NCBI GenBank assembly: GCA_030615475.1
Contig: JAUWZF010000005.1
Location: 1-15,280, forward strand
Reading direction: 5' to 3'
Length of the DNA: 15,280 nucleotides
Source of the DNA: Dehalococcoidales bacterium
GTDB taxonomy: Bacteria; Chloroflexota; Dehalococcoidia; Dehalococcoidales; RBG-16-60-22
This document shows positions 1,758 to 13,230 of the stretch, piece by piece; within the stretch, counting starts at the first letter, position 1; every line of letters begins with the position of its first letter. Made by a program: the position numbers and the translations under genes. Below the pieces are notes generated by a model. The model saw only the letters and a program-made list of their open reading frames with translations. It searched no databases and was not told the origin of the DNA.

Positions 1758-1760
1758 GAC

Positions 1761-1770
1761 TCCCCTCCCC
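1761..1770 (-). promoter_or_regulatory. Ribosome binding site that fixes the DUF72 start
   Basis: On the minus strand this reads as a purine run with a GGAGG core six bases before the ATG at 1757. It favours that start over the upstream ATG at 1820. Confidence 0.65.
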
Positions 1771-1784
1771 CAGACTTTGAAATT

Positions 1785-1815
1785 ATTATACTCCAACAGG
1801 CTAAGTGAATGCCAA
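1785..1815 (-). promoter_or_regulatory. Predicted sigma70-type promoter for DUF72-recN
   Basis: Minus strand: a perfect TATAAT (1785-1790) with TTGGCA (1810-1815) upstream. The 19-base spacer is longer than ideal. Predicted transcription would begin about 20 bases before the DUF72 ATG. The -35 box sits in the T-rich tail of the terminator that ends the preceding operon. Confidence 0.5.
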
Positions 1816-1861
1816 AACAAAGGGAACCACCGGGCGGTAGTACTCCGCCATGATGGTCCCC
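1808..1861 (-). terminator. Rho-independent terminator closing the pad-like operon
   Basis: Bases 1822-1861 form an imperfect hairpin. The inner stem GGCGG/CCGCC (1833-1837 with 1845-1849) has a 7-base loop. The outer stem pairs 1822-1824 and 1826-1829 with 1859-1861 and 1854-1857, with one mismatch and a small internal loop. On the minus strand the stem ends in CCC and is followed by TTTGTTTT, as expected for intrinsic termination 27 bases after the stop of the membrane subunit gene. Confidence 0.65.
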
Positions 1862-1887: not shown

Positions 1888-2769
1888 CTATTCGGCTGGT
1901 AGGAGCGGCGTGTACACGCCCGCTTTCAGTATGGCGAACCTTAACGCCAGGCCGCCGATTATCTCGCTTACTATGGCAGTAGTCAACAGTCCGGACGAAA
2001 CCTCCCCGACAAAATAGGTGGTAATAGAGATGACAATCGGTATGACTATACCGAACAGGAAAACGCCGATCCAGAAGAGCGGGGCAAGACTGCCCCCGAT
2101 AAGCCTCTTGACAGCATCCTTCGCCGCCGTGCTGCTGTAGGTGGTGTTCCAGAGGTAAACGCCGATGATAATGGCCAGAGCTATCAGCACGACACGGATA
2201 ATGTTCTCAAGCGCGATAAGCTGGGCATGGTCGCCGGCCATCATTATAGCCAGGAGTATGGCGAGTCCGCCGGTCAGACCGCAGGTAACGAAGAGGACCG
2301 GTACAATCGCCGAATTCCATATTTTAATGGCACTGACATAGCTCACGGCAAAGCCGGTATAGATTGACTGGGCAAAGGCGAATATCCCGGCTAATACCAT
2401 GAACACGGTTATGGCGGTGGTTGCCCCCGGGACCCACTGGGAGAGGATAAGCTGTATCGTAGTCAAACCGATAAACAGCATTATGAATATAAAGCCGCGA
2501 GCTATCCAGGAAGTGCCCGGCTTCATAAACATCCGCCAGAACCTGAGTGGTTTGCTCAGGTGTATCATATAGGATAGACCCATAGCCAGGGCGAGCAGCC
2601 AGGCTACAAACATGCCCAAGAGGTTATCAAAGTAGGCAGCCGCCATATACAGGCCACCACTGATGCCCCCCAGGAAAAAGGCAAAGGCAATAAAGTTCCC
2701 CCGGCCATCTATCCAGTCTTTCTGCTGCGTGTACTTCACCATAAATTCATATGGTTTCATCTGAATCAT
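1888..2769 (-). CDS. padD: NrfD/PsrC-type membrane subunit, PadD-like
   Basis: This 293-residue integral membrane protein has about eight hydrophobic helices, roughly at residues 26-47, 50-72, 92-111, 117-146, 154-178, 188-207, 228-253 and 257-280. Layout and length match the NrfD/PsrC family, which anchors iron-sulfur/molybdenum complexes and exchanges electrons with quinone. No cytochrome-like heme motif is apparent. It starts 29 bases after the iron-sulfur subunit gene, with GGGGAGG nine bases before the ATG, and is the last gene before a terminator. By context it should pass electrons from phenylacetyl-CoA oxidation to the quinone pool. The NrfD assignment is strong. The name padD rests on the neighbouring ligase and oxoacid oxidoreductase, not on a diagnostic residue, and other NrfD enzymes (tetrathionate, polysulfide or sulfite type) share this architecture. 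Confidence 0.85.
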   Translation of the reverse strand: MIQMKPYEFMVKYTQQKDWIDGRGNFIAFAFFLGGISGGLYMAAAYFDNLLGMFVAWLLALAMGLSYMIHLSKPLRFWRMFMKPGTSWIARGFIFIMLFIGLTTIQLILSQWVPGATTAITVFMVLAGIFAFAQSIYTGFAVSYVSAIKIWNSAIVPVLFVTCGLTGGLAILLAIMMAGDHAQLIALENIIRVVLIALAIIIGVYLWNTTYSSTAAKDAVKRLIGGSLAPLFWIGVFLFGIVIPIVISITTYFVGEVSSGLLTTAIVSEIIGGLALRFAILKAGVYTPLLPAE

Positions 2770-2798
2770 TTCCGTATGCCTCCCCTTAAATTACTCGG

Positions 2799-3446
2799 TC
2801 AGTCAACGTAGTGGATTGACGGATCCGTGTCAAACTCAGGATGGAAAGGATGACCGTGCCTTTCCTTGATTACCCGGTTAATTTCGCTGTTGGGGTCATC
2901 CAGATCACCAAAGTGTATGGCTTTCGTCGGGCAGTTGATAACACAGGCCGGGGTAGCCTCGCGGTCAACACCGGGTGTTAACCCCAGCGCCATGCCGGAA
3001 TCGATTCTCTCCTTACAGAAAACGCACTTCTGGACTACCCCCAGGGCGTGAGGATACAACTCCCGTCCCATCTTCTCATGTTCGGTCAACTCCTGACCCG
3101 GGAAATACTGCGCTTTACCGTCATCATACATTGACCGCATCTGGTACGGACAGGCAACCATGCAGTACCGACAACCAACGCACTTGTCCTCGTCAACCCA
3201 CACGATGCCGTCTTCCCGCTGCTCTGTGGCCCCGGTGGGACAAACCTTGACACAGGCCGGGTCGGCACAATGATTGCAGCGTACCGTGTAGATGAGCTTG
3301 GTTACCGCCGGATACTTGCCGCTCTCTCCTATCAAAACCCTGTTCCAGAAAATATCGGGTGGCAGGAAGTGCTCCGCCTTGCAGGCCAAGACGCACTCAT
3401 AGCAGCCGACGCATCTTTTCAGCTCTATCGCCATTCCCCATCTCAT
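2799..3446 (-). CDS. padC: Four-cluster [4Fe-4S] electron-transfer subunit, PadC-like
   Basis: This 215-residue protein belongs to the DmsB/NrfC/PsrB family. It has sixteen cysteines in four ferredoxin-type groups: C12/15/18/22, C57/60/65/69, C89/92/95/99 and C141/144/168/172. That is the full complement for four [4Fe-4S] clusters wiring a molybdopterin subunit to an NrfD anchor. No Tat or Sec signal precedes the first cluster, as usual for this subunit. The ATG overlaps the stop of the catalytic subunit gene by four bases, with GGAGG nine bases upstream, so translation is probably coupled; Met5 (3434) is a possible alternative start. It should relay electrons from the Mo site to the membrane subunit downstream. 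The padC name is by context. Confidence 0.88.
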   Translation of the reverse strand: MRWGMAIELKRCVGCYECVLACKAEHFLPPDIFWNRVLIGESGKYPAVTKLIYTVRCNHCADPACVKVCPTGATEQREDGIVWVDEDKCVGCRYCMVACPYQMRSMYDDGKAQYFPGQELTEHEKMGRELYPHALGVVQKCVFCKERIDSGMALGLTPGVDREATPACVINCPTKAIHFGDLDDPNSEINRVIKERHGHPFHPEFDTDPSIHYVD

Positions 3447-6181
3447 AGCTTGTCACCTCCTGCTCCATCAAATTCTATTCTGTGGTCAATCTTATACACC
3501 TTGACCATCATTGCCGTCTCCTGGCTCCAGCATACCGGGCAGGCATGCTTGAAGTCTGATTCCAGCAGAATATTGAAGTTGGTACCCTTGCCATAGGCAA
3601 TGGGAGCACCCTTTGCCCAGGCGCCGGAGCAGGCGGATATGGCTATCGTCTTGGGGTGCTGACCCTGCATCGTCTTGAGGGTGCCGGTAGTCTTCCGCCC
3701 GTATGGCGACTCAAGGCAGATAAGGTCTCCGTCTTTAAGTCCCTTCTCCTCGGCGGTAGCCGCGTTCATGGTGATATTGTAGGTGTACGGATTAAGTCTG
3801 CTTACCTCGTCGAGCCAGGGCATTTCCATAGTGTAGGTGCCGTTGTGGACTATATCCCGATAGGAGAAGCTGTACAGGTCATACTCATCAGTAACCTCTT
3901 TGCCTACCTGCGGAGTGAAGTAACTGATGAGAGGCGTAAATTGCTCCCATTCGAGCTCTATACCCGCCTTCTCGGCGTTCTCCATGATTCCTTCCTTCAG
4001 CTCGGCGATGTGCTCCATGTAGATGGGTATCCTGACATCCACGTACCATCGCCAGTAAGCCTCCTTGACCTGCTTAGGCCAGCTAACACCACCGTGTTTC
4101 GAGATGTACTTCAGGTCATGCTTATCGCCGAAGTAGAACTTGAAGGCGCGGTCCATCATCTCGGGATAGGTAATCTTCTCATCAGGTTTTATCAGCTGGG
4201 TTACCTTCTTCGGGTCTATCTGCTTGACATCCCTGACACTGGCGATGTCGCCGCTTATCAGCGCCTCGCCGCCAAAGCTGGAGAAATAGACATTGTAGTA
4301 TTGATTCATCTCTCCTCTCATGTCTATTCTATCCGCCAGGTCCCAGAGGGCCTCAACCTTATTCCTCCGCTCATACTGGGGCTGAACCACAGGCTGCCTT
4401 ATCGGGAAAGTCCAGCCTTCCATGCCTATCGGGTGGTTAAAGAAGGGACCATGCGTTCCAAAGAGACAGTAAGCTTCCAGGGGGTGGCAATCGGGGAGGA
4501 CAATATCGGCAAAGCCCTCCATGAACTCGTTGGGTAGAATATTAAAGGATACCGTGAAGGGTATTTTCTTAAAGAATTTCTCGGCTATCTCGCGATTCTG
4601 GGTGCTGCGGATCATGTTGGCGCCGAAAATCATGGCTATTTCTATCTCGTATGGGCGACCCAGCTTATCCCAGTATTTATCAAAATCAGAGGTTACCGGC
4701 TGGGGAGAAAATGAGGCCGTGGGCACCATCTCCTTCATGAGAAAAGTATCGGGCACCTTGGACTCTTCCACCGGCCAAGGCTTATGCTCCATGAAGGTCC
4801 CGGCCGTCAGCATGCCGTCTTTGCAGGCGTACGGTATAACCTTGAACCTGCCTGTTTCCGGATGCCCTGCAACGTATGCCGGCCAGCCCAGCGTCCCACC
4901 GGGGACATCCATGGCGCCGACGATGGCGTTGAGCAGGCACATCGCACAGTAGCTCTGTGCCGAATTGGTGTGCCCCTGCCCACCACGGAACATGACGGCG
5001 GCTACCGGCCGGAGGGGAAGCTTTTCTCCCTCGATTTCAATGGTAGCTCCCACCATGGCTGCCTCAGCCCACTCGCTGGCGATGCGGCGGATGGTTGCCG
5101 CCGGCACGGTGCTCTCTTTTTCAGCCGCTTCTGGCGTGTACTGCTTCATATGGTCTTTGACCAGCTGGAATGACGGGTGGCATTTGACACCGTTAACCTC
5201 GTATTCACCGAGGATGGCGAAATCGCCGATGGTGGGGTCATCAAATGTCTTGGCTTTCCCGTCGCCTGCATCCCAGACCATGGGCTTATTGGTCTCTTTA
5301 TCCCTGATATAGAGCTCGTCCGGCCCGATGAGGTACGGCCCGTTTGTCTTCTTTTTAATGAACTCGGCATCATATATATTCAGCTCATTAAGGATGATAT
5401 TAACCATCGTCAGGGCGACAATCCCATCCGTGCCCGGCAAAATGGGTATCCACTCGGTGGCCTTGCCTCCGCCGAAGTTACAGATGGGGTCGAAGACGAT
5501 GTTCTTCATGCCCCTGGCCCTGGCATCAGCCGACAGCCTCATGTTAAAGCCCATGGAATGTCCCGAGCCGGTCCCTTTGTTGGAGCCCATCTGAATAACG
5601 TAGTTGCAGTACTTATAGTCGGGAACGATTGACCATGAGGCATGATAGAGGCCAGCACCCATGTGCGAGCCGCTGCCGCAGTGAAGCCCGGCGCCGCCGA
5701 CGTACCAGTTCTTGGTGCCGAAGACCGCCCCGAAAACGCCGAAGCCCAGGGGCAGGTCCGGTCCGCTGCCCGGCCCGGGCGTGCCGCCGTGAAAGAGCTT
5801 ATTGGGGTTCTCGGCGCGTATTTTCTTGAGGCGCTCGGCTATCTCGTCGAGGGCTTCGTCCCAAGAAATACGCTCCCACTTGGGGTCTTCGAAAAGTCCC
5901 TTTTTCGGGTTGGTCCTTTTCATCGGGTAGTTGATACGGTTGGGGTCATAGAGGGCCTGTATCATGGCTTCGCTCTTGGCGCATATCCCTCCCCGGGGAC
6001 CAAAGTCGTTGTCAGGCTCACCATTAATTTTCACGATGACACCGTTAACCCGGTGGGCGCGTATAGTGCACTGGCCATAGCAGCCGCCGCAGGTCGTCTT
6101 CACCCAGGTATCGTCCCAGATTTCCGGGTTACCCTTTACCGACATACCTCTTACCGGCTTACTTTGAGTTGGTGTAACCAT
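3443..6181 (-). CDS. padB: Molybdopterin oxidoreductase catalytic subunit, likely phenylacetyl-CoA:acceptor oxidoreductase (PadB-like)
   Basis: This 912-residue protein belongs to the DMSO reductase family. The N-terminal [4Fe-4S] motif is C31-x2-C34-x3-C38 with C67 in GGICAKSEA. The typical family segment ISWDEALDEIAERLKKI follows at about 105-121. A GTKNWYVGGAGLHCGSG segment puts C168 where the protein ligand to Mo or W usually lies. A dinucleotide-binding domain fills about 750-890 (NPYTYNITMNAATAEEKGLKDGD). There is no twin-arginine signal, so the enzyme should stay in the cytoplasm, where a CoA ester would be available. In the known pad pathway the Mo enzyme oxidises phenylacetyl-CoA to phenylglyoxylate with water and quinone, and the flanking genes here match that. 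A strong AAGGAGGTG lies about ten bases upstream of the ATG. Family certain; substrate inferred. Related tungsten or molybdenum enzymes (acetylene hydratase, transhydroxylase, thiosulfate reductase types) are alternatives. Confidence 0.8.
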   Translation of the reverse strand: MVTPTQSKPVRGMSVKGNPEIWDDTWVKTTCGGCYGQCTIRAHRVNGVIVKINGEPDNDFGPRGGICAKSEAMIQALYDPNRINYPMKRTNPKKGLFEDPKWERISWDEALDEIAERLKKIRAENPNKLFHGGTPGPGSGPDLPLGFGVFGAVFGTKNWYVGGAGLHCGSGSHMGAGLYHASWSIVPDYKYCNYVIQMGSNKGTGSGHSMGFNMRLSADARARGMKNIVFDPICNFGGGKATEWIPILPGTDGIVALTMVNIILNELNIYDAEFIKKKTNGPYLIGPDELYIRDKETNKPMVWDAGDGKAKTFDDPTIGDFAILGEYEVNGVKCHPSFQLVKDHMKQYTPEAAEKESTVPAATIRRIASEWAEAAMVGATIEIEGEKLPLRPVAAVMFRGGQGHTNSAQSYCAMCLLNAIVGAMDVPGGTLGWPAYVAGHPETGRFKVIPYACKDGMLTAGTFMEHKPWPVEESKVPDTFLMKEMVPTASFSPQPVTSDFDKYWDKLGRPYEIEIAMIFGANMIRSTQNREIAEKFFKKIPFTVSFNILPNEFMEGFADIVLPDCHPLEAYCLFGTHGPFFNHPIGMEGWTFPIRQPVVQPQYERRNKVEALWDLADRIDMRGEMNQYYNVYFSSFGGEALISGDIASVRDVKQIDPKKVTQLIKPDEKITYPEMMDRAFKFYFGDKHDLKYISKHGGVSWPKQVKEAYWRWYVDVRIPIYMEHIAELKEGIMENAEKAGIELEWEQFTPLISYFTPQVGKEVTDEYDLYSFSYRDIVHNGTYTMEMPWLDEVSRLNPYTYNITMNAATAEEKGLKDGDLICLESPYGRKTTGTLKTMQGQHPKTIAISACSGAWAKGAPIAYGKGTNFNILLESDFKHACPVCWSQETAMMVKVYKIDHRIEFDGAGGDKL

Positions 6182-6232
6182 CTGTATAATCCACCTCCTT
6201 AGTTATACGGCTTTCTCGCCGCTATTTTCTAA

Positions 6233-6260
6233 TTTATACGATATTGAAAAATTAGTGTAA
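6233..6260 (-). promoter_or_regulatory. Candidate internal promoter for padBCD-like genes
   Basis: Minus strand: TTACAC (6255-6260) and TATAAA (6233-6238) with a 16-base spacer. This would give a leader of about 45 bases before padB that contains its Shine-Dalgarno site. It lies in the only large gap (177 bases) inside the operon, so padBCD may also be expressed separately from the oxidoreductase genes. Confidence 0.4.
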
Positions 6261-6287
6261 CTCATAAAGAGAATTTTTTACACCAAT
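6251..6287. repeat. Inverted repeat upstream of padB-like gene, possible operator
   Basis: The arms ATTAGTGTAA (6251-6260) and TTACACCAAT (6278-6287) pair at nine of ten positions with 17 bases between them. The left arm contains the predicted -35 box. The spacing suits a dimeric regulator contacting separate turns of the helix. The loop is AT-rich and no T-run follows, so it does not look like a terminator. Confidence 0.4.
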
Positions 6288-6358
6288 CCGGGATATTTTT
6301 AAGGCTTATTGCTTCCAGACAACCCTCCTTTACTATAAATCACCATGAATAACCGGGA

Positions 6359-7288
6359 TTACTTACTGGCATCGCAAAGGCTCTTGATAAGGGCATACCG
6401 CTCATCGGCCACCTTTTGCAGTTCTGCCAGGCCATCTTCTTTCAGGTGGGAGAATTTCCGCATTAACTTCGTTAATTCAGTGACCGGCTTGGGGCTGGCG
6501 ACCTCATGGGTGAGGCGGAACTTACCATTTTCTGCTTCCCACAGCGGGAAATAATTGGTTCTCACCGCCGCGCGGCACACCTCAATGGACGAGTCAGGTT
6601 CTATGCGCCAGCCCATAAGGCAGGGGGCGAAAACATGAATATAAGCAAACCCTTCGTCTTTCTTCTCCTTTGCCTTGAGCAGTTTTTTGGCGAAGTCCTC
6701 CAGGTGACTCAGGGTGGCGGTAGCCACATAGACGGCTCCATGCATGGCCATAATGAGGGGCATGTTCTTAGATGGTGTTGGCTTGCCCTTGCCGGCGATA
6801 CCAACGGGGGTGGTGCTAGTCCAGGCACCCAGAGGGGTAGTGCTGCTTCTTTGATAACCGGTGTTCATGTAGCCTTCATTGTCGTAGCAGATGTAAATAA
6901 TATTCTCGTTTCTCTCGGCGGCACCGCTGAGGGGCTGGAAGCCGATATCAGCCGCGCAACCGTCGCCGGTGAAGCAGACTATGGTGGCGTCTTTGCCTAT
7001 CTTCTTATAGTACCTGGCAAGGCCGGTGGCGCTGGAGGGGACTCCGGTCATCAAACAGCTATAATAAGTCATACGATGCCATGTCCCTACGTTCTGTCCG
7101 TAAAAAACCGGGGCAGAGCAACCGGGGCAACCGACAAGCACCATATCCTTTCCCAGAACTTTCGGCACAAATCTGGCGGTGAGTTCCAGAGTACAGCCGG
7201 GACACCAGGCAACGCCTCCTGCATACAGCTCCTCTTTTTCGCGGAAATAGTCAAAAATCTTGTTTCTTTTCTTCGTTCCTTCTACCAT
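6359..7288 (-). CDS. padI: 2-oxoacid:acceptor oxidoreductase beta subunit (TPP-binding), PadI-like
   Basis: This 309-residue protein is the thiamine-diphosphate subunit of a pyruvate:ferredoxin oxidoreductase-type enzyme. N-terminal cysteines C29-x2-C32, plus C54-x2-C57, fit the cluster and active-site region of PorB proteins. The TPP/Mg signature runs from GDGCAADIG (108-116) to YDNEGYMNTG (135-144). The conserved APCLMGW segment is near residue 220. It follows the alpha gene after only four bases, with GGAGG nine bases before the ATG. In the pad pathway this subunit decarboxylates phenylglyoxylate and helps form benzoyl-CoA. The PorB family is certain, while pyruvate, 2-oxoisovalerate or indolepyruvate as substrate cannot be excluded from sequence alone. 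Confidence 0.85.
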   Translation of the reverse strand: MVEGTKKRNKIFDYFREKEELYAGGVAWCPGCTLELTARFVPKVLGKDMVLVGCPGCSAPVFYGQNVGTWHRMTYYSCLMTGVPSSATGLARYYKKIGKDATIVCFTGDGCAADIGFQPLSGAAERNENIIYICYDNEGYMNTGYQRSSTTPLGAWTSTTPVGIAGKGKPTPSKNMPLIMAMHGAVYVATATLSHLEDFAKKLLKAKEKKDEGFAYIHVFAPCLMGWRIEPDSSIEVCRAAVRTNYFPLWEAENGKFRLTHEVASPKPVTELTKLMRKFSHLKEDGLAELQKVADERYALIKSLCDASK

Positions 7289-7292
7289 TTTC

Positions 7293-8492
7293 TTATTCCT
7301 CCATCGGTATCCAGGTTACTTCCTGGTAGGGCTTGCCCTGTGCGGCGGCGCTTACTTCATCTATCACTCTCTCTATATGTGGTATGGTTATATCCAAATT
7401 AGCCAGCCCATCGATATAGCTCAGCATGGGTATGATGCCAATTTCCGGCGTAAGTGCTCTTATCTCCATATACATGGGCCCGCAGTTCCAGCCGAAACCA
7501 ACACTCCGGTCAATGACCCCTATTGCCTTCTTCCCCTTGAGGGCTTCGGCTAGCCGCTTACGAGGAAAGGGACGGAATAATCTTAACTTAACCAGGCCCA
7601 CTTTTATTCCCTCTGCCCTTTTAGCGTCAACCACCGTCCGTGCCGTCCCGGTGGCACTACCAGAGGTTACCAATACTATCTCTGCGTCCTCAGTGCGGTA
7701 CTCCTCTATCTGGCCTCCGTAGCTTCGCCCAAAAATTTCCCCGAACTCCTTGTCTATCTCATCCAGCTTTGCGGTTGCGCGTTCCAGAGCTGCACAGTGT
7801 TTGTAGCGAAGCTCCATAAACCCTATCTCAATACCGTGGGTGCCGCAGCTCAGAGGTTCTCCCGGAACCAGCCTGGGACGCTCCGGTTGCTGCTTTAAAG
7901 GTGCCAGGAACTGGTCGGCATCTTCCCTCTCCGGGATTTCCACCGCCGTTGCCAGGTAGGAAAGATAAAACCCGTCGTAGTTCACCATCACCGGAAGCTG
8001 GATATCAAAGTCTTCCGCCAGCCGAAAGGCCATTATCACCGAGTCAAGGATTTCCTGGCAGTCCTCCACTATTATCTGAATCCATCCTGTATCTCTCATG
8101 CTGATTATGTCCTGCTGACCACCGGAGACGGCCAGGATGCCCGGCGTCTCCCGGTTGGCGATAGCCATCACCACCGGGGCCCTGAAGCCAGAGGCTTGCT
8201 GGACAGCGTCATACATGAATACAAGACCCCAAGAGGACGTGGCGGTGAAAACCCGGCCACCGGCCATGCTGGCGGCAGTGACGACGTTCATCGCCGAATT
8301 TTCTCCCTCTACTTCTACCATCTCAGTATCCACGAGTCCATCAGCACGGAATGCGGAAAGCTGTTCTGCCACCTCACTCATTGGAGTTATGGGGTATGAA
8401 GTTGCTACATCCGGCCGGCAAAGCATAGCCCCGTAGGCGGCGGCGGCATTGCCGGTTATTACCCTGACCTGACCTTTTTGAGCTTTAGCCAT
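7293..8492 (-). CDS. padG: 2-oxoacid:acceptor oxidoreductase alpha subunit, PadG-like
   Basis: This 399-residue protein is the PorA-type alpha subunit. Near the N-terminus are GNAAAAYGA, then YPITPMSE (33-40), then an acidic stretch with VEVEGENSAMN, which in this family reaches the TPP site. The middle has TSSWGLVFM and SGGQQD, typical of the pyrimidine-binding domain. The rest matches the transketolase C-terminal-like domain (VTSGSATGTAR, LRLFRPFP). Its start overlaps the delta subunit stop by eight bases, with AAGGAG about nine bases upstream. In Azoarcus evansii the NADH-linked PadH gene follows padG; here the beta gene follows at once. Only the subunit type is certain. Confidence 0.86.
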   Translation of the reverse strand: MAKAQKGQVRVITGNAAAAYGAMLCRPDVATSYPITPMSEVAEQLSAFRADGLVDTEMVEVEGENSAMNVVTAASMAGGRVFTATSSWGLVFMYDAVQQASGFRAPVVMAIANRETPGILAVSGGQQDIISMRDTGWIQIIVEDCQEILDSVIMAFRLAEDFDIQLPVMVNYDGFYLSYLATAVEIPEREDADQFLAPLKQQPERPRLVPGEPLSCGTHGIEIGFMELRYKHCAALERATAKLDEIDKEFGEIFGRSYGGQIEEYRTEDAEIVLVTSGSATGTARTVVDAKRAEGIKVGLVKLRLFRPFPRKRLAEALKGKKAIGVIDRSVGFGWNCGPMYMEIRALTPEIGIIPMLSYIDGLANLDITIPHIERVIDEVSAAAQGKPYQEVTWIPMEE

Positions 8493-8778
8493 CGGTGAAT
8501 TCTCCTTCCGGAACCATAGAAATTACGTCTCGCGGGCATTCTTTAGCACAGACACCGCAGCCTTTGCAGTAAGCCAGGTCAACCTCGTAATAGTCTCCCA
8601 TGTCTTTCATGCACTGCGGGGGACAGTAGAGCGCGCAGAGACCGCAGTAGTTGCACTTCTCTTTATCCAGTACCGGCCTGGCCGTCCGCCAGCTCCCGGT
8701 GTCCATGCAAAGGAGCCCCTCATTGGCGTCAGACCAGGCGTTCTCGGTCTTTAAGATGAATTTATGCTTTATTACCAT
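8485..8778 (-). CDS. padF: 2-oxoacid:acceptor oxidoreductase delta subunit, 2x[4Fe-4S] ferredoxin-like, PadF-like
   Basis: This 97-residue subunit is built like PorD. After about 40 residues containing TGSWRTARPVLDKEKC, it has two complete [4Fe-4S] motifs: C42/45/48/52 and C71/74/77/81, each last Cys followed by Pro. It overlaps the gamma gene by seven bases and the alpha gene by eight, which implies coupled translation and one stoichiometric complex. A GGAGG lies seven bases before the ATG. Its role is to carry electrons from the TPP site to the external acceptor, most likely ferredoxin given the lack of an NADH-linked subunit. Confidence 0.86.
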   Translation of the reverse strand: MVIKHKFILKTENAWSDANEGLLCMDTGSWRTARPVLDKEKCNYCGLCALYCPPQCMKDMGDYYEVDLAYCKGCGVCAKECPRDVISMVPEGEFTDG

Positions 8779-9320
8779 CGGATTACCTCCACTTCGCGGT
8801 AGCCTCTCTCGACACTCTTCAGATTTCTCTCAAGGATGGCGCCGCTGAGATAGTCCGGCAGGCAGGACAGAATTGACTTCAATTCCAGCCAGCCGGTAGC
8901 GGCGGCAAAGGCGCCGAGAAGGCAAGTATTGGGAACATCCCGGCCGACTTCCTCAATGGCTATCCGGGTGGCGTTGACCACGCCGCCTATCTTGAGGTTT
9001 TCATCAGGCTGTTCGGTTAACTTCTTCGGGCTGTTCAGAATGAACACGCTTTCCGGCTTCAACCCCGTAAACAGGGTGGGGAGAGTTAGCAGGCCGGGGT
9101 CAATGACTATCAGGCAATCAGGGGTGTAGATTTGAGTTTTTTCCCGAATAGGTTTGTCATCAAAGCGAGTGAAAGCCACTACTGGTGATCCCCGTCTTTC
9201 AAAACCGAACATGGGAAAGGTAGCCACCGACTTGCCCTCGAGAACGAAGGCGCTGGCCAGCATCCTGGCCGCCATAACGCCCCCCTGCCCGCCACGTCCG
9301 TGAATCCTAATCTCTTTCAC
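8772..9320 (-). CDS. padE: 2-oxoacid:acceptor oxidoreductase gamma subunit, PadE-like
   Basis: This 182-residue protein is the PorG-type gamma subunit. It opens with the family motif GRGGQGGV (8-15), followed by FPMFGFERRGSPVVAFTRF, a segment typical of the subunit that contacts CoA and closes the complex. The start is a GTG at 9320 with GAGGGG about eleven bases upstream; an ATG eight bases further upstream is followed at once by a stop. It begins 79 bases after marR ends, on the same strand, and overlaps delta by seven bases. The order gamma-delta-alpha-beta equals padE-F-G-I of denitrifiers but also occurs in ordinary por or vor operons, so the pad name depends on the neighbours. Confidence 0.85.
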   Translation of the reverse strand: MKEIRIHGRGGQGGVMAARMLASAFVLEGKSVATFPMFGFERRGSPVVAFTRFDDKPIREKTQIYTPDCLIVIDPGLLTLPTLFTGLKPESVFILNSPKKLTEQPDENLKIGGVVNATRIAIEEVGRDVPNTCLLGAFAAATGWLELKSILSCLPDYLSGAILERNLKSVERGYREVEVIRW

Positions 9321-9349
9321 AGTTACATAATCCCCTCTTCATTCGTATT

Positions 9350-9376
9350 CAGCGCAGACAGTCCCCGGTTGCGCTG
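9350..9376. repeat. Perfect 7-bp inverted repeat between marR and the gamma gene
   Basis: CAGCGCA (9350-9356) pairs with TGCGCTG (9370-9376) around a 13-base loop in the 79-base marR-gamma gap. No T-run follows on the minus strand, so it is not an evident terminator. It could be an operator, an RNA processing hairpin, or chance. Confidence 0.3.
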
Positions 9377-9399
9377 TGAAACCACGATTTTTATTAAAA

Positions 9400-9894
9400 T
9401 TATTCGCGAAGCTTTCCGTTGCCGGCGGTCCTGGCGAGCCGGGGAGACAGGCTCTCTCTAATCGTCCTCATAATACCTACTAAAGCTTCAATCTGCTCTT
9501 TGTCTAGGCAGGACAAAACCTCACGGCTTAACTCCTGGGCGACGGGATTCAGCTGATTGGCTTCCTGCCAGCCTTTATCAGTGATGACGACTTTCACGGA
9601 CCTGCGGTCGTTAAGCGATGGCTCCCGGCGGACAACTCCCTGCCTTTCCATGGTATTAATAACCGCCGTAATGGAATTCTTTTCCCGGAAGACGCTCTCC
9701 GCGATTTCCGACGGCGTCATCTCGCCGCCGTTCTTGAACAGCGTACTCATGATGTGAAATCTGATGAGGGTGGCGTGGTAACGTCTTAACTCTACTTCAA
9801 GATACCGCGCCAGCACCTCGAAAGACATGAGGATGGATAATAAGGTGCCCAGCGGGGTTTTGTCGGTTCTCTTGCTTACTTCACTGATGGTCAT
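9400..9894 (-). CDS. MarR-family transcriptional regulator
   Basis: This 164-residue protein has a MarR winged-helix domain at about residues 40-125. The DNA-binding part has TPSEIAESVFREKNSITAV as helix-turn-helix and EPSLNDRRSVKVVITDKG as the wing, with the conserved DRRS. It sits between the divergent ligase gene and the oxidoreductase operon, where MarR regulators usually control both sides. A palindrome (9938-9954) overlaps its own predicted -10 box, which suggests autorepression relieved by an effector. Phenylacetyl-CoA or phenylacetate is a reasonable but untested candidate. Only a weak GGAAAA precedes the ATG, consistent with low-level expression. Confidence 0.88.
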   Translation of the reverse strand: MTISEVSKRTDKTPLGTLLSILMSFEVLARYLEVELRRYHATLIRFHIMSTLFKNGGEMTPSEIAESVFREKNSITAVINTMERQGVVRREPSLNDRRSVKVVITDKGWQEANQLNPVAQELSREVLSCLDKEQIEALVGIMRTIRESLSPRLARTAGNGKLRE

Positions 9895-9937
9895 GCTTTT
9901 TCCGAGGGGTAACTACGAAGCGTCAAATTAAGTTCTA

Positions 9938-9954
9938 TACAGAATTATTCTATA
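9938..9954. promoter_or_regulatory. Palindrome over the marR -10 box, likely MarR operator
   Basis: The core AGAATTATTCT (9941-9951) is an inverted repeat with a single central base, and the flanking TA/TA extends it to 17 bp with one mismatch per half-site. TTCTATA also occurs twice in direct orientation (9933-9939 and 9948-9954). Length and position fit MarR-type operators. Confidence 0.5.
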
Positions 9955-9975
9955 ACTATTGCCAGTCGATGTCAA
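9947..9975 (-). promoter_or_regulatory. Strong predicted sigma70-type promoter for marR and downstream genes
   Basis: Minus strand: a perfect TTGACA (9970-9975), a 17-base spacer and TAGAAT (9947-9952), one base off consensus. The transcript would start about 45 bases before the marR ATG. The -10 box lies within the palindrome at 9938-9954. Confidence 0.6.
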
Positions 9976-10040
9976 CAAAAAATAACAGTCAATCTCTTTT
10001 AATAGCGTTATTACCGGGTGTATATAACGGTACGGTTTTG

Positions 10041-10052
10041 TTCCATATGGAA
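10041..10052. promoter_or_regulatory. Perfect 12-bp palindrome in the divergent promoter region
   Basis: TTCCATATGGAA is self-complementary. It lies about 65 bases upstream of the marR -35 box and 53 bases upstream of the candidate ligase -35 box, a position open to an activator or a second repressor dimer. Its sequence differs from the palindrome at the marR promoter, so a different protein may bind. Confidence 0.35.
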
Positions 10053-10104
10053 TGAACGATTCTTTTCTAATGCGGCCAAAAGTAACTCTCCGCAGGCGCA
10101 TCAT

Positions 10105-10134
10105 TTGCCAACACAGGCTATTTTTGAGTATATT
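10105..10134 (+). promoter_or_regulatory. Candidate promoter for the phenylacetate-CoA ligase gene
   Basis: TTGCCA (10105-10110) and TATATT (10129-10134) with an 18-base spacer; an overlapping TATTAT at 10131 is an alternative -10. The leader would be about 55 bases. Confidence 0.35.
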
Positions 10135-10181
10135 ATATCTGGCTGATAGCGTCCCAGTCCCGTGACTGATAAGTAATAGAT

Positions 10182-10189
10182 AGGAGAGG
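10182..10189 (+). promoter_or_regulatory. Ribosome binding site that fixes the ligase start
   Basis: AGGAGAGG lies eight bases before the ATG at 10198. The in-frame GTG at 10189 overlaps this site and so is unlikely to be the start. Confidence 0.65.
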
Positions 10190-10197
10190 TGCGTGCC

Positions 10198-11529
10198 ATG
10201 AATAGCGGCGAATACTGGAACCCCCTACTGGAAACACTGCCCCGGGAAAAACTCCAGCGACTGCAATTGATGAAGTTCCGGGAGATTTTTACCTGGGCCT
10301 ACGAACACTCCAAGTTTTACCACAAGCTCTACAGTGATGCCGGCATAGAACCGGGCGATATCAAGACATTCGACGATGTAAAAAGAGTTCCCAGGATAGA
10401 AAAATCCATGATGAGAGACATCCAGGGTAAAGACCCCTTCCCGTACGGCGATATCCTGTGCGTCCCTCTGGAACAGGTGACGGATTACCGCCAGACCAGC
10501 GGCACGACGGGGCAACCCATTTACCAGGCCGATACCTGGCAGGACTGGGAATACAGTACCGAGTGTTACGCCTACGCGCTGTACGCCCAGGGCTACCGGA
10601 GCCGCGACCGGCTGTTCGTGCCCTTCGGTTATAATATCTTTATCGCCTTCTGGGCCTACCACTACGCCGGCGAGAAGCTGGGCTGCGAGGTGATTCCCGG
10701 CGGCGTCCTGAATACCGAGGCACGCATATTAAAGATGCAGGAGCTGAAAGCCACGGCGATGGGGGCCACGCCGACCTACGTGCTGGGCATGGCGGAGACG
10801 GCCAGAAAGATGGGCATAGACCCTCCTAAAGACCTGTTCATCAGGAAAATCACGGTGGCGGGAGAGCCCGGGGGCAGCATCCCGGCCACCCGGAAAAGGA
10901 TGGAGGAGGCCTGGGGGGCCAAGGTCTACGACCAGGTGGGCAGTACGGAAATCGGCCACTGGGGCTGGGAATGCCAGCACCAGTCCGGCCTGCATGTTAA
11001 CGAGGCGCACTTCCTGGTGGAAATTGAAGATGTTGATACGGGCGAACCCATCACCGGGCCCGGCAAGAGGGGCAAGATGGTGGTGACGTCCTTCACCCGC
11101 CAGGCGCAGCCCTGCATCAGGTTCGATGTCAAGGACTTGATTCAGTGGAACACGCAGCAATGCGATTGCGGGCGGACATTCCGGCTGCTGGAGGGCGGCC
11201 TTAAGGGGCGCACCGACGACATCACCAAGGTCAAGGGCGTGCTGCTATCGCCGATGTCTATCGAGGAAGTGGTCAGGGACATACCGCAGTTGAGCAACGA
11301 ATACCAGGTGGTCGTCACCAAGAAGGGTGACATCGACGATATTACGCTAAAAGTGGAAATAATCCCCGAGTACAAGGACGACGAGGCCGCCATCAGGGCG
11401 GTGCTGACCGACCAGCTTAGAGTGAAGACCAATCTGGGCTATAACATAGAATTTCACGAGTACGAGAGCCTGCCCCGGTCCCAGACCAAGAGCCGCCGGT
11501 TCCAGGACCAGAGGCCCAAACAACATTAG
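10198..11529 (+). CDS. paaK: Phenylacetate-CoA ligase (PaaK/PadJ family)
   Basis: This 443-residue AMP-forming ligase activates an aryl acid, ATP and CoA to the aryl-CoA thioester in the cytoplasm; length is normal for PaaK. Visible motifs are the ATP-binding loop QTSGTTGQP (99-107), AGEPGG (221-226), YDQVGSTE (244-251), the PaaK-style CDCGRTF (322-328), GRTDD (337-341), and a C-terminal AMP-binding C2 domain ending in a lysine-containing LPRSQTKSRR (K431). The tail is a little unusual: the common GKAxR form is replaced by QTKSRR. The gene diverges from marR and the oxidoreductase operon, the typical setting for the first step of anaerobic phenylacetate degradation. Phenylacetate is the family default; 4-hydroxyphenylacetate, indoleacetate or benzoate-like acids are possible substrates. 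Confidence 0.88.
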   Translation: MNSGEYWNPLLETLPREKLQRLQLMKFREIFTWAYEHSKFYHKLYSDAGIEPGDIKTFDDVKRVPRIEKSMMRDIQGKDPFPYGDILCVPLEQVTDYRQTSGTTGQPIYQADTWQDWEYSTECYAYALYAQGYRSRDRLFVPFGYNIFIAFWAYHYAGEKLGCEVIPGGVLNTEARILKMQELKATAMGATPTYVLGMAETARKMGIDPPKDLFIRKITVAGEPGGSIPATRKRMEEAWGAKVYDQVGSTEIGHWGWECQHQSGLHVNEAHFLVEIEDVDTGEPITGPGKRGKMVVTSFTRQAQPCIRFDVKDLIQWNTQQCDCGRTFRLLEGGLKGRTDDITKVKGVLLSPMSIEEVVRDIPQLSNEYQVVVTKKGDIDDITLKVEIIPEYKDDEAAIRAVLTDQLRVKTNLGYNIEFHEYESLPRSQTKSRRFQDQRPKQH

Positions 11530-11539
11530 GAGTATGACA

Positions 11540-11725
11540 ATGGCACAGGAATACGATATCAAAGGGATGGTGGAGAAAATCCGGGCCCTCAGGAAGAACG
11601 CCGAGGAGCTGAAGGAAATTTCCGGCGGTATTCAGGCCGTGGACCGGAATGCCGACCGCATCCTGGCCAACGTGAAGATGCTGGAAATATCCGTAAGCGA
11701 CGTGGCGGAGGTGCTGGGGAAGTAG
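11540..11725 (+). CDS. Small helical protein of unknown function, behind the ligase gene
   Basis: I do not recognise this 61-residue protein. It is charged and free of Cys and Trp, and looks almost wholly helical, with heptad-like hydrophobic spacing (MVEKIRALRKNAEELKEI, then ADRILANVKMLEISVSDVAEVL), suggesting a short coiled coil or helical hairpin. The AGGAG at 11528-11532 overlaps the ligase stop and is seven bases from the ATG at 11540; the ATG at 11534 is too close to that site. It starts ten bases after the ligase gene and is followed by a terminator, so it is probably cotranscribed and may act with the ligase. No signal peptide or membrane segment is seen. Confidence 0.7.
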   Translation: MAQEYDIKGMVEKIRALRKNAEELKEISGGIQAVDRNADRILANVKMLEISVSDVAEVLGK

Positions 11726-11847: not shown

Positions 11848-13230
11848 ATGCAGGAATATACCGAAAGACTAGGTTCCGCACCCCTGGGCAGGCTGCTTCT
11901 CAAGTTAAGCCTGCCGAGTATAGCCGGAATGATAACCATGAGTCTCTATAATATCGTTGACACCTTCTGGGTTGCCCGGTTGGGTCACGAAGCTATCGCG
12001 GCATTGACGATAGTATTTCCCTACCAGATTCTGTTTATTGCCGCAGGGGTAGGCACTGGTGTCGGTATCGGCGCTCTCGTTTCCCGGCGATTTGGTGAGA
12101 ATAATATCGAAGCCACAAACCACGTGGCCGGCCAGATATTCTTTTTAAGCGTTTTCTGGGGTGTACTCTTCATGGTGGCGGGCGTTTTCTTCTCAAAAAG
12201 CATCCTTACGGCATTCGGGGCTACGCCGGACATCATGGAATACGGCACCCAATATCTGGTAATTATTTCCTACGGAGCACCCCTGATAATCTTCGTTCTG
12301 GTGGTGAGTAGCCTTATCCGCGGTTCCGGTGACGCCGTAAAGCCAATGATTATCATGATTGCCGCGAGCGTGATAAATATTATCCTGGACCCGGTGTTGA
12401 TTATCGGCCTCGGGCCTTTCCCGGAAATGGGTATTCGTGGAGCGGCGCTGGCGACCATCATCGCTCAGTCGATAGGGGCGGTGCTCGCTCTCTATTACTT
12501 CCTGGCCCATAAAACCTCTTACCGGATACGGGTAAGCCACCTTCTCCCTAATATGCCCATCCTGCGTGATATTTACCGCGTCGGGGCCCCATCGTCGATA
12601 ATGGAATTGACAGAGAGCCTGGCCTTCATCCTGTTTAACAGAGTGGTGTCTACCTACGGGTCAATTGCCATCGCGGCGGTAGGCCTGGCCATCCGGATTT
12701 CCGACTTTGCTTTCATGCCGATTATCGGCGTCTCCAACGGGCTGCTGCCTATCGTCGGCTTCAGTTTCGGCGTTAAAAATTTCAAACGCCTGTGGCGGGC
12801 GGTAAAGTTGGCCTCGGTCGGTATCGCGCTGTTCCTTACCGTGGCTACCGTATTCATAGAGATATTTACTCCCCAGCTTATCAGTATCTTCAACGACGAC
12901 GTCGAATTACTTGAGGTAGCCGTACCTTCAATGCGTATATTACTGTCCACGATGCTGTTTATAGGTCCCAATATCATGTTTGTCACCGCATTCCAGGGGC
13001 TTTCCAGGGGGACGATGGCCTTGATTCTTTCTCTGGTGCGCCAGTTCATCCTGTTTGTCCCGCTACTGTATCTTTTCTCCCATCTATTCGGCATGTACGG
13101 AGTCTGGTATTCACTACCGGCCTCGGATACCCTGGGCTTTCTGGTGGCATACGGGTTTATCTATGTGGAATACAGGAGGCAGAAAAAGAGCGGTTACTGG
13201 ACGGATATTTCCGCGACGGATAGCGTATAA
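11848..13230 (+). CDS. MATE-family efflux transporter
   Basis: This 460-residue protein of the MATE (multidrug and toxin extrusion) family has about twelve hydrophobic segments in two halves. The N-terminal half has the family opening LSLPSIAGMITMSLYNIVDTFWVARLG (residues 20-46) in several pieces, then VFPYQILF and the GIGALVSRRFGENN loop. The second half starts near residue 246 with GAPSSIMELTES and contains GLAIRISDFAFMPIIG. MATE proteins export cationic drugs or metabolites using Na+ or H+ gradients. The gene has its own unit after a strong terminator, with only a weak GAGAAAAG before the ATG. Substrate unknown; no obvious link to phenylacetate metabolism beyond proximity. Confidence 0.92.
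   Translation: MQEYTERLGSAPLGRLLLKLSLPSIAGMITMSLYNIVDTFWVARLGHEAIAALTIVFPYQILFIAAGVGTGVGIGALVSRRFGENNIEATNHVAGQIFFLSVFWGVLFMVAGVFFSKSILTAFGATPDIMEYGTQYLVIISYGAPLIIFVLVVSSLIRGSGDAVKPMIIMIAASVINIILDPVLIIGLGPFPEMGIRGAALATIIAQSIGAVLALYYFLAHKTSYRIRVSHLLPNMPILRDIYRVGAPSSIMELTESLAFILFNRVVSTYGSIAIAAVGLAIRISDFAFMPIIGVSNGLLPIVGFSFGVKNFKRLWRAVKLASVGIALFLTVATVFIEIFTPQLISIFNDDVELLEVAVPSMRILLSTMLFIGPNIMFVTAFQGLSRGTMALILSLVRQFILFVPLLYLFSHLFGMYGVWYSLPASDTLGFLVAYGFIYVEYRRQKKSGYWTDISATDSV

What the first reader, a model, noticed from the sequence alone, without database searches (positions are those of the whole stretch)
1888..11725. Compact anaerobic phenylacetate-to-benzoyl-CoA module
Seen: a PaaK-type ligase diverges from a MarR regulator, four oxoacid oxidoreductase subunits and a three-subunit molybdopterin/FeS/NrfD complex. 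Known: this set carries out phenylacetate -> phenylacetyl-CoA -> phenylglyoxylate -> benzoyl-CoA in Aromatoleum and Thauera (PadJ, PadBCD, PadEFGHI). Inferred: the host uses the same route, or an analogous arylacetate route. If the host is Chloroflexota, as its style suggests, this would widen the known range of the pathway, and downstream benzoyl-CoA reductase genes should exist elsewhere in the genome.
Basis: partly seen in the sequence, partly recalled or inferred. Interest (0 to 1): 0.72.

Follow-up and report, generated by a model that had tools for sequence, protein, structure and literature searches.

The report
Acid-shortening module resembling phenylacetate pathway
An uncultured relative of Dehalococcoides carries a gene set that probably activates an organic acid, oxidises the carbon next to the acid group and splits off CO2, much like the known phenylacetate route, but its enzymes are only distantly related to that route and the ring-breaking steps that should follow were not found in the host or its close kin.

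Summary
The contig belongs to a partial (77.65% complete) genome in Dehalococcoidia, probably Dehalococcoidales by its named kin. The layout (divergent PaaK-like ligase and MarR; 2-oxoacid oxidoreductase gamma-delta-alpha-beta; cytoplasmic Mo/FeS/NrfD complex) is conserved in close kin. The general chemistry, acyl-CoA alpha-oxidation followed by oxidative decarboxylation, is well supported: the Mo subunit falls in a PadB-like clade outside the respiratory enzymes tested, and linkage to such oxidoreductases recurs in several phyla. It is not a PadBCD-EFGHI-J set: Mo, alpha and ligase lie outside PadB, PadG and PadJ, PadH is missing, and beta lacks PadI's N-terminal FeS domain. The ligase is about 30% identical to PadJ and to E. 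coli PaaK, which are 64% identical to each other. The predicted benzoyl-CoA reductase was not found (BcrB, BamB, OAH: none over cut-off in the host or four relatives with this module; all are incomplete or of untold completeness), whereas two other relatives with related modules have BamB. The catalytic alpha/beta pair seems to have been replaced by a paralogue with a different active-site signature, so the substrate is open. Pad-type genes were already predicted in a Dehalococcoidia cell (PMC4959651): a new variant of a known kind.

The parts
1888..2769 (-). NrfD-type membrane anchor, 293 aa (position of PadD)
   Evidence: PF03916 78.9 bits, cut-off 25.8; 28-30% identical to the anchor in the second Pad operon type L149/L153/L160; the PadD of L144 gives no Pfam match at 1e-5
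2799..3446 (-). FeS electron-transfer subunit, 215 aa, PadC-like
   Evidence: 42.7% identical over 213 aa to the 215-aa PadC of L144, 33% to E. coli DmsB; Fer4 families
3443..6181 (-). molybdopterin/Fe4S4 catalytic subunit, 912 aa, cytoplasmic, PadB-like clade
   Evidence: PF00384, PF04879, PF01568; tree of 119 rows; no Tat motif and open frame only 919 aa; Cys168 aligns with the Cys of ArrA and PsrA at that place
6359..7288 (-). 2-oxoacid oxidoreductase beta (TPP) subunit, 309 aa, without PadI's N-terminal FeS domain
   Evidence: PF02775; PadI model positions 138-439 only, 313 bits, cut-off 700; DNA mostly nearer to a stand-alone paralogue than to module kin
7293..8492 (-). 2-oxoacid oxidoreductase alpha subunit, 399 aa, apparently replaced by a paralogue
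   Evidence: PF01855, PF17147; tree; sliding identity; signature PITPM / NRETPGILAVSGGQQD
8485..8778 (-). 2-oxoacid oxidoreductase delta (ferredoxin-like) subunit, 97 aa
   Evidence: TIGR02179 86.5 bits, over cut-off 60.05
8772..9320 (-). 2-oxoacid oxidoreductase gamma subunit, 182 aa, GTG start
   Evidence: TIGR02175 191.5 bits, over cut-off 81.1
9400..9894 (-). MarR-family regulator, 164 aa
   Evidence: PF01047 46.9 bits, cut-off 24.6; 80-92% identical in module kin
9895..10188 (.). divergent promoter/operator region: TTGACA (9975-9970, - strand) with a -10-like TAGAAT 17 bases on, imperfect inverted repeat about 9931-9945, inverted repeat CGTTATTA...TATAACG 10006-10029, palindrome TTCCATATGGAA 10041-10052
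   Evidence: blocks conserved, with changes, in the four-locus alignment window/L035/L037/L213; coordinates; function inferred
10189..11529 (+). PaaK-like AMP-forming acyl-CoA ligase, 446 aa (GTG; an in-frame ATG lies 9 bases later)
   Evidence: PF14535 64.8 bits; PaaK model TIGR02155 249 bits, cut-off 646; about 30% to PadJ and to E. coli PaaK
11848..13230 (+). MATE-family transporter, next to the ligase in the window and in L035; possible exporter of product (speculative)
   Evidence: TIGR00797 247 bits, over cut-off; L035

Best explanation
It is a Pad-like one-carbon-shortening module. The ligase makes an acyl-CoA from an incoming acid of the type R-CH2-COOH. The membrane-anchored, cytoplasm-facing Mo/FeS/NrfD complex oxidises the CH2 next to the thioester to a keto group (four electrons, to the quinone pool) and releases the 2-oxo acid R-CO-COOH. 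The four-subunit, ferredoxin-linked oxidoreductase then turns that into R-CO-CoA, CO2 and reduced ferredoxin. MarR senses a pathway ligand and controls both arms from the shared promoter region. R is probably an aryl or other bulky group, but it is not fixed: alpha and beta appear to have been replaced by a paralogue. In this lineage R-CO-CoA is probably not ring-reduced; it may leave as free acid after CoA recovery. Shown: gene set, conserved order, clade positions, mosaic alpha/beta, no BCR/OAH found at the stated thresholds. Inferred: the reactions, electron acceptors, regulation, substrate class and fate.
For: The Mo subunit lies in a 112-row clade (SH-aLRT 100) with PadB proteins of real pad operons and outside E. 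coli DmsA, FdnG, NapA and a PhsA-like protein. It has no Tat motif, as expected for CoA-ester substrates. FeS subunit 43% to PadC at equal length. This Mo clade is linked to gamma/delta/alpha/beta oxidoreductases in several gene orders in Chloroflexota, a Desulfobacula and other delta-type MAGs: 11 of 24 named loci inside the 39-row subclade against 0 of 37 outside (loci only). In relative G301 the Mo (67%) and alpha (63%) homologues lie on the contig that also carries BamB (1186 bits to the solved benzoyl-CoA reductase 4z3w) and OAH over cut-off, within about 40 kb; there beta (436 aa) keeps the PadI N-terminal FeS domain. Housekeeping Por is a separate clade.
Against: No subunit passes a Pad equivalog cut-off. 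The alpha substrate loop differs from both Por and PadG. The ligase is not a PaaK/PadJ orthologue and scores almost as well to 2-hydroxyisobutyryl-CoA synthetase (208 bits) as to phenylacetate-CoA ligase (218 bits). No ring-reduction genes were found in the lineage. NrfD was not detected in the related modules of G301 C7 and ARS79, nor a separate FeS subunit in ARS79, so the membrane link is not general. One oxidoreductase cluster (L218) sits beside Mo proteins of the PhsA-like group outside the PadB-like clade, so linkage alone does not prove this chemistry. No functional data exist.
Confidence: 0.6

Rival explanations
1. Complete anaerobic phenylacetate pathway as in Aromatoleum, feeding benzoyl-CoA into ring reduction in the same cell.
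For: Same functional classes in one locus. Relatives G301 and G302 have related modules plus class II BamB. Pad oxidoreductases were predicted in DEH-C11 (PMC4959651). The genomes searched lack parts: G000, G294 and G302 do not show the housekeeping Por alpha that G295-G297 and 13 of 13 family/order relatives have.
Against: 0 of 5 genomes with this very module (G000, G294-G297) has a BamB match at E<=1e-60, OAH over cut-off or BcrB over cut-off (one weak hit, 21 bits, in G294). Bzd-type and BcrC models were not searched separately. No PadH; alpha, Mo and ligase lie outside the Pad clades.
Confidence: 0.1
2. A narrower form of the best explanation: phenylacetate or a close arylacetate is the substrate, but the cell only shortens it to benzoyl-CoA and releases benzoate (recovering ATP, for example through ADP-forming acyl-CoA synthetases), exporting it through the neighbouring MATE transporter and leaving ring reduction to partners.
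For: No ring-reduction genes found in the lineage; ADP-forming synthetase-like alpha subunits in G000 (2 hits of 418-421 bits, below the 567 cut-off); MATE beside the ligase in the window and in L035; indolepyruvate-type oxidoreductase genes or pieces in G000 and kin could supply arylacetyl-CoA.
Against: Ligase lacks the PaaK pocket sequence; alpha loop unlike PadG; MATE substrate unknown; an AMP-forming ligase makes the energy yield poor.
Confidence: 0.3
3. Another narrower form: the substrate is a non-aromatic, hydroxylated or branched acid; the module is a general alpha-oxidation tool.
For: Ligase scores nearly as high to 2-hydroxyisobutyryl-CoA synthetase as to PaaK; third alpha signature with the Por/PadG tryptophan replaced by serine; no aromatic ring genes found.
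Against: The closest module of G301 sits with BamB and OAH, which points to aromatics for the ancestor.
Confidence: 0.25
4. Respiratory Mo reductase (polysulfide/thiosulfate/arsenate type) lying by chance next to a pyruvate synthase.
For: PhsA, DMSO type II and ArrA models are the best NCBIfam matches of the Mo subunit, all far below cut-off.
Against: No Tat motif; PadB-like clade; conserved linkage; alpha not in the housekeeping Por clade.
Confidence: 0.03
5. The alpha/beta mosaic is an assembly chimera in the MAG, not a real replacement.
For: G000 shows only one alpha gene; the MAG has 265 contigs; no reads can be checked. No alpha entry shares a contig length with a Mo entry in the database listings.
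Against: Module and stand-alone copies of one genome (L038, L209) are only about 72% and 62-65% identical near the two junctions, which gives an assembler little to confuse.
Confidence: 0.2

Closest known systems
Phenylacetyl-CoA:acceptor oxidoreductase PadBCD (Thauera/Aromatoleum type)
   Same: Three subunits Mo/FeS/membrane anchor; no Tat motif; Cys at the same position in 8 of 8 PadB1 and 3 of 3 PadB2 rows; FeS 43% to PadC; next to an oxoacid oxidoreductase
   Different: Mo 27-34% identical to the two PadB types and in another subclade; anchor matches NrfD in Pfam, the PadD of L144 does not
Phenylglyoxylate:NAD oxidoreductase PadEFGHI
   Same: gamma, delta, alpha, beta present; PadG and PadI models match slightly better than Por models (397 v 394, 313 v 292 bits)
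   Different: No PadH, no N-terminal FeS domain on beta, alpha outside the PadG clade, different substrate loop: presumably ferredoxin-linked and of other specificity
PadJ / PaaK phenylacetate-CoA ligase
   Same: Same AMP-forming superfamily branch and C-terminal domain PF14535
   Different: About 30% identical, while PadJ and E. coli PaaK are 64% identical to each other; segment FGYNIFIAFWAYHYAGE in place of YGYGLFTGGLGAHYG(G/A)E (that this is the substrate pocket is recalled)
Pad-type genes predicted in Dehalococcoidia DEH-C11 (Wasmund et al. 2016, PMC4959651; passages read)
   Same: Both oxidoreductase classes in the same class of bacteria
   Different: Sequences of DEH-C11 were not compared here; the passages read report gene content, no assay

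Membership tests
PadBCD | Mo subunit in the PadB clade | tested here: not met
   119-row tree: shares the large PadB-like clade but lies outside the PadB1 (8 rows) and PadB2 (3 rows) clades
PadBCD | cytoplasmic Mo subunit without Tat signal | tested here: met
   open frame of 919 aa leaves no room
PadBCD | FeS subunit of PadC type and membrane anchor of PadD type | tested here: inconclusive
   FeS 43% to PadC; anchor NrfD-like, unlike the PadD of L144 but 28-30% to that of the second Pad operon type
PadBCD | oxidises phenylacetyl-CoA to phenylglyoxylate with quinone | not testable with these tools
   needs enzyme assay
PadEFGHI | alpha in the PadG clade / over NF045764 cut-off | tested here: not met
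   397 bits against cut-off 700; outside the 13-row PadG clade
PadEFGHI | NAD(FAD)-binding subunit PadH | tested here: not met
   no window gene typed as pyridine-nucleotide oxidoreductase; tblastn of PadH over 70 bits finds none in module kin, but does in ARS79 (L070/L214) and others; the rest of G000 was not searched for it
PadEFGHI | PadI with N-terminal FeS domain | tested here: not met
   309-aa beta aligns to model positions 138-439 of 443; relative G301 C7 has it (436 aa)
PadJ/PaaK | over PaaK model cut-off, grouping with known PaaK | tested here: not met
   249 bits, cut-off 646; about 30% identity; no ligase tree was built
Housekeeping pyruvate synthase (Por) | alpha groups with the Dehalococcoidales Por | tested here: not met
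   separate clade, 36-41% identity
Respiratory Psr/Phs/Arr reductases | Tat signal and grouping with them | tested here: not met
   (PsrA and ArrA were not in the tree; E. coli DmsA, FdnG, NapA and a PhsA-like protein were)
Complete phenylacetate-benzoyl-CoA degradation | benzoyl-CoA reductase and OAH in the genome | tested here: not met
   none over cut-off (BcrB, OAH) or at E<=1e-60 (BamB) in G000 and G294-G297; genomes incomplete or of untold completeness; one PF01869 match at a contig end (C26) was not typed; bzd and BcrC models not searched

The most novel reading that the evidence does not exclude
A Dehalococcoidales lineage has turned an ancestral arylacetate-to-benzoyl-CoA module into a stand-alone alpha-oxidation route: ring reduction and the NAD-linking parts were lost, and by swapping in the catalytic alpha/beta pair of a paralogous oxidoreductase the route acquired a new substrate, a third specificity class beside pyruvate and phenylglyoxylate enzymes, whose shortened product is excreted or cross-fed.
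Probability: 0.25. Interest if true: 0.65.

Novelty: new variant of a known kind. Interest (0 to 1): 0.42.

Why it matters
What the non-dehalogenating Dehalococcoidia live on is little known. A Pad-like module without ring reduction would make them arylacetate or fatty-acid shorteners that pass products to partners, a claim that can be tested with one labelled substrate. It also warns that gene-name annotation (PaaK, Pad, Por) can over-predict complete aromatic degradation in MAGs, and points to an oxidoreductase-linked subclade of PadB-like Mo enzymes in several phyla of which I know no characterised member.

Tried and rejected
Rejected: housekeeping pyruvate synthase (separate clade); respiratory reductase; benzoyl-CoA reductase in G000 from PF01869 (the typed hit is a generic activase, TIGR00241, between plsX and an amidohydrolase; the second hit, C26, runs to a contig end and was not typed); BamB among the AFOR proteins of G000 (19 hits to an AOR-like query, but none at E<=1e-60 to a true BamB).

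Led nowhere: plasmid tblastn for a named PadB (best-ranked hit 28% identical over 95%). The contig-length comparison is only suggestive; its lists were copied by hand and may hold slips. Structure prediction was not used. Rows dropped: alpha tree kept proteins of 340-460 aa and 150 bits or more (L110 and L179 left out); Mo tree kept 780-1000 aa (one of the nine PadB1 stretches, L147, is missing); the linkage count left out loci shorter than 5.7 kb and counted L036, whose contig starts at the Mo gene, as unlinked. That count is biased because its queries come from the window. The Mo tree was a quick search without bootstrap, with long outgroup branches that do not form one side.
Full report
WHAT IS THERE. 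The window is contig C88 of a 1.41-Mb, 265-contig genome, 77.65% complete. Gene calls and families confirm the finding. On the minus strand lie MarR, oxidoreductase gamma, delta, alpha and beta, the Mo subunit, the FeS subunit and NrfD; on the plus strand, diverging from MarR, the PaaK-like ligase and then a MATE transporter. Shine-Dalgarno-like sequences precede most starts. DUF72 (849-1820) lies beyond NrfD and a weakly GH42-like protein (13558-15054) beyond the MATE gene.

HOST AND CONSERVATION. The best named relatives of the Mo subunit are Chloroflexi RBG_13_51_18 (87%), a Dehalococcoidales MAG (86%), Dehalococcoidia W425 (85%) and another Dehalococcoidales MAG (86% over residues 1-642). 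The order ligase/MarR/gamma-delta-alpha-beta/Mo/FeS/NrfD/DUF72 is the same in L035 and L037; the truncated L038 and L213 agree as far as they reach. Of 294 genomes drawn from the class, 18 (G000 included) had a Mo match at E<=1e-100; besides G000 only G039 and G062 had one of 60% identity or more.

REGULATORY REGION. Aligning the ligase-MarR gap of the window, L035, L037 and L213 shows conserved blocks: TTGACA with a -10-like hexamer 15-17 bases on (counted by eye), an imperfect inverted repeat (about 9931-9945), an inverted repeat CGTTATTA...TATAACG (10006-10029) and TTCCATATGGAA (10041-10052) (coordinates). That these are promoter and MarR operators is inference.

MO SUBUNIT. It has the Fe4S4 cysteines and a Cys (168) that aligns with the Cys of ArrA and PsrA at that place (that these are Mo ligands is recalled). 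It has no Tat motif, and the open frame (919 aa) leaves no room for one; the three E. coli enzymes show one. For true Pad references I searched 150 genomes of the family of a Sulfuritalea genome with the PadI model: 26 of 150 matched, all over cut-off. Stretches around 13 of these matches were fetched: 9 show Mo, FeS, gamma, delta, alpha, FeS-beta and a PaaK in that order; three (L149, L153, L160) have Mo, FeS, NrfD and the oxidoreductase but no PaaK; L161 shows no Mo gene. PadH was found in all 12 shorter loci L123-L134. In a 119-row tree the window's Mo lies with these PadB proteins in a 112-row clade (SH-aLRT 100), outside DmsA, FdnG, NapA and a PhsA-like protein, but not inside PadB1 (8 rows) or PadB2 (3 rows). 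In its own 39-row subclade, 11 of 24 named loci have at least two oxidoreductase subunits nearby, against 0 of 37 named loci outside (Fisher p 6e-6; loci only, queries from the window, so biased; the pad operons themselves lie outside this subclade and are linked too). Against a one-to-one rule, the Mo proteins beside one oxidoreductase cluster of G298 (L218) group with the PhsA-like protein.

OXIDOREDUCTASE. NCBIfam scores PadG and PorA almost equally (397 and 394 bits), both under cut-off. In a 53-row tree alpha falls neither in the Dehalococcoidales housekeeping Por clade nor in the PadG clade (13 rows plus L220), but in a third clade (18 rows, 88/92) with the Mo-linked alphas of G301, ARS79, Desulfobacula and others. 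The stretch after Asn113-Arg114 differs by clade: Por mostly NRALSxPLSVWGDHSD, PadG mostly TRDGITPQSVWGGHQD, the four module kin NRETPGIHAVSSGQQD, window NRETPGILAVSGGQQD. The window and the two stand-alone copies have Met where the other alphas mostly have Gln after PITP. That this stretch lines the active site is recalled, not shown here.

MOSAIC. The window's alpha is 84-85% identical to stand-alone copies in G296 and G297 but 72-76% to the alphas of the module kin, and groups with the former (99/93, 100/97). Sliding DNA identity to the nearest module relative L038 is 87-92% over MarR and gamma, 79-88% around delta, 68-81% over alpha and beta, and 82-84% after them; to stand-alone L209 it is mostly 77-84% over alpha and beta, with dips to 74 near the alpha/beta boundary and 70-74 at the end of beta. 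L209 lies near CoA-transferase genes, an aldehyde:ferredoxin oxidoreductase and a short-chain dehydrogenase; no such families were found among the neighbours of L208 that were scanned. So alpha and beta of this module appear to have been replaced by the paralogue. An assembly chimera cannot be excluded.

LIGASE. It is 30.7% identical to PadJ and 29.5% to E. coli PaaK, which are 63.6% identical to each other. Solved relatives score 218 bits (phenylacetate-CoA ligase) and 208 bits (2-hydroxyisobutyryl-CoA synthetase). Close homologues in the databases are mostly named phenylacetate-CoA ligase where a name is given, but sequence does not justify that substrate.

DOWNSTREAM PATHWAY. BcrB: over cut-off in 0 of 16 genomes, matches at E<=0.001 in 8 of 16 (best 176-190 bits in G303, G305, G306); none in G000, G295-G297 and one of 21 bits in G294. 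The model's cut-off is thus not met even in genomes with OAH, and bzd and BcrC models were not tried. OAH: in G000 only crotonase-level hits (71 and 54 bits, cut-off 464); of 15 other genomes over cut-off in 6 (G039 and G301 are apparently the same genome), a partial match in G062/G300, and none at 1e-30 in G294-G297, G299, G302 or G304. BamB: with G301's BamB, which scores 1186 bits to the solved benzoyl-CoA reductase 4z3w, 4 of 9 genomes match at E<=1e-60 (G301, G302, G303, G306), none of G000, G294-G297. In G301 the module relative, BamB and OAH share contig C7 within about 40 kb. So two related Dehalococcoidia genomes have a module plus class II reduction, and the window's lineage seems to lack the latter. 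Caution: completeness of G294-G297 was not told, and G000, G294 and G302 do not show the housekeeping Por alpha either, although 13 of 13 family/order relatives have it.

WHAT ELSE THE GENOME OFFERS. ADP-forming acyl-CoA synthetase-like alpha subunits are in 6 of 7 genomes, all below cut-off; two in G000 (421 and 418 bits, cut-off 567). An indolepyruvate oxidoreductase piece (271-aa frame at a contig start) is in G000; 4 of 7 genomes have a match over cut-off. Arylacetyl-CoA supply and ATP recovery are therefore possible but unproven.

LITERATURE. PMC4959651 (passages) reported phenylglyoxylate and phenylacetyl-CoA oxidoreductase genes in a Dehalococcoidia cell and proposed the phenylacetate route. 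PMC5736913 (passages) and PMC6472368 (passages) report class I benzoyl-CoA reductase in marine Chloroflexi or Dehalococcoidia; PMC10570749 (passages) reports BamB in some Dehalococcoidia MAGs; PMC7673041 (passages) reports bcr or bam genes in MAGs that include Dehalococcoidia. PMC5109826 and PMC4148979 (passages) describe partial or full Pad gene sets in sulfate reducers. PMC10581246 (passages) proposes the same route in ANME archaea. None of the passages I read describes this module without ring reduction or the alpha/beta replacement; the searches were made, most listed papers were not opened, and only the held open library was searched.

VERDICT. Observation confirmed; interpretation right in kind, not in membership, and its prediction of benzoyl-CoA reductase was not borne out. 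A new variant of a known kind with an open substrate.

Noticed in passing
L154-L156 (G301 contig C7, 140-200 kb): Dehalococcoidia-class genome with a related Mo/oxidoreductase module, an aldehyde:ferredoxin oxidoreductase, a PaaX-like regulator (below cut-off), three BamB-type proteins and OAH within about 40 kb: a class II benzoyl-CoA cluster.
   Followed up: partly
L070/L214 (G302, Dehalococcoidales ARS79): Module with a PadH-like pyridine-nucleotide subunit between alpha and beta (order Mo, gamma, delta, alpha, PadH-like, beta with N-terminal FeS part), no separate FeS or NrfD gene detected; the same genome has BamB on other contigs.
   Followed up: partly
L149, L153, L160 (genomes of the Sulfuritalea family): A second pad-like operon type: Mo 33-34% to the window instead of 27-32%, NrfD-type anchor, no PaaK in the stretch; substrate unknown.
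   Followed up: no
rows outside the 39-row subclade of the Mo tree, e.g. L063, L081, L084, L089, L098: Large PadB-like Mo family mostly without detected oxidoreductase neighbours in Rhodospirillaceae, Betaproteobacteria, Zixiibacteriota, Planctomycetota and others, with several copies in some genomes (L081 holds three); function unknown.
   Followed up: no
G000, many contigs: 19 matches to an aldehyde:ferredoxin oxidoreductase in a 1.4-Mb genome, none at BamB level: a striking expansion of such oxidoreductases.
   Followed up: no
window 849-1820: DUF72 protein conserved beyond NrfD in L035, L036 and L037 (73-79%); no link to the pathway is evident.
   Followed up: no
G298 (L217-L220, L075, L206): One delta-type MAG holds seven matches to the alpha subunit at E<=1e-40; one of them (L220) lies beside a PadH-like gene (47%) and groups with PadG.
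   Followed up: partly
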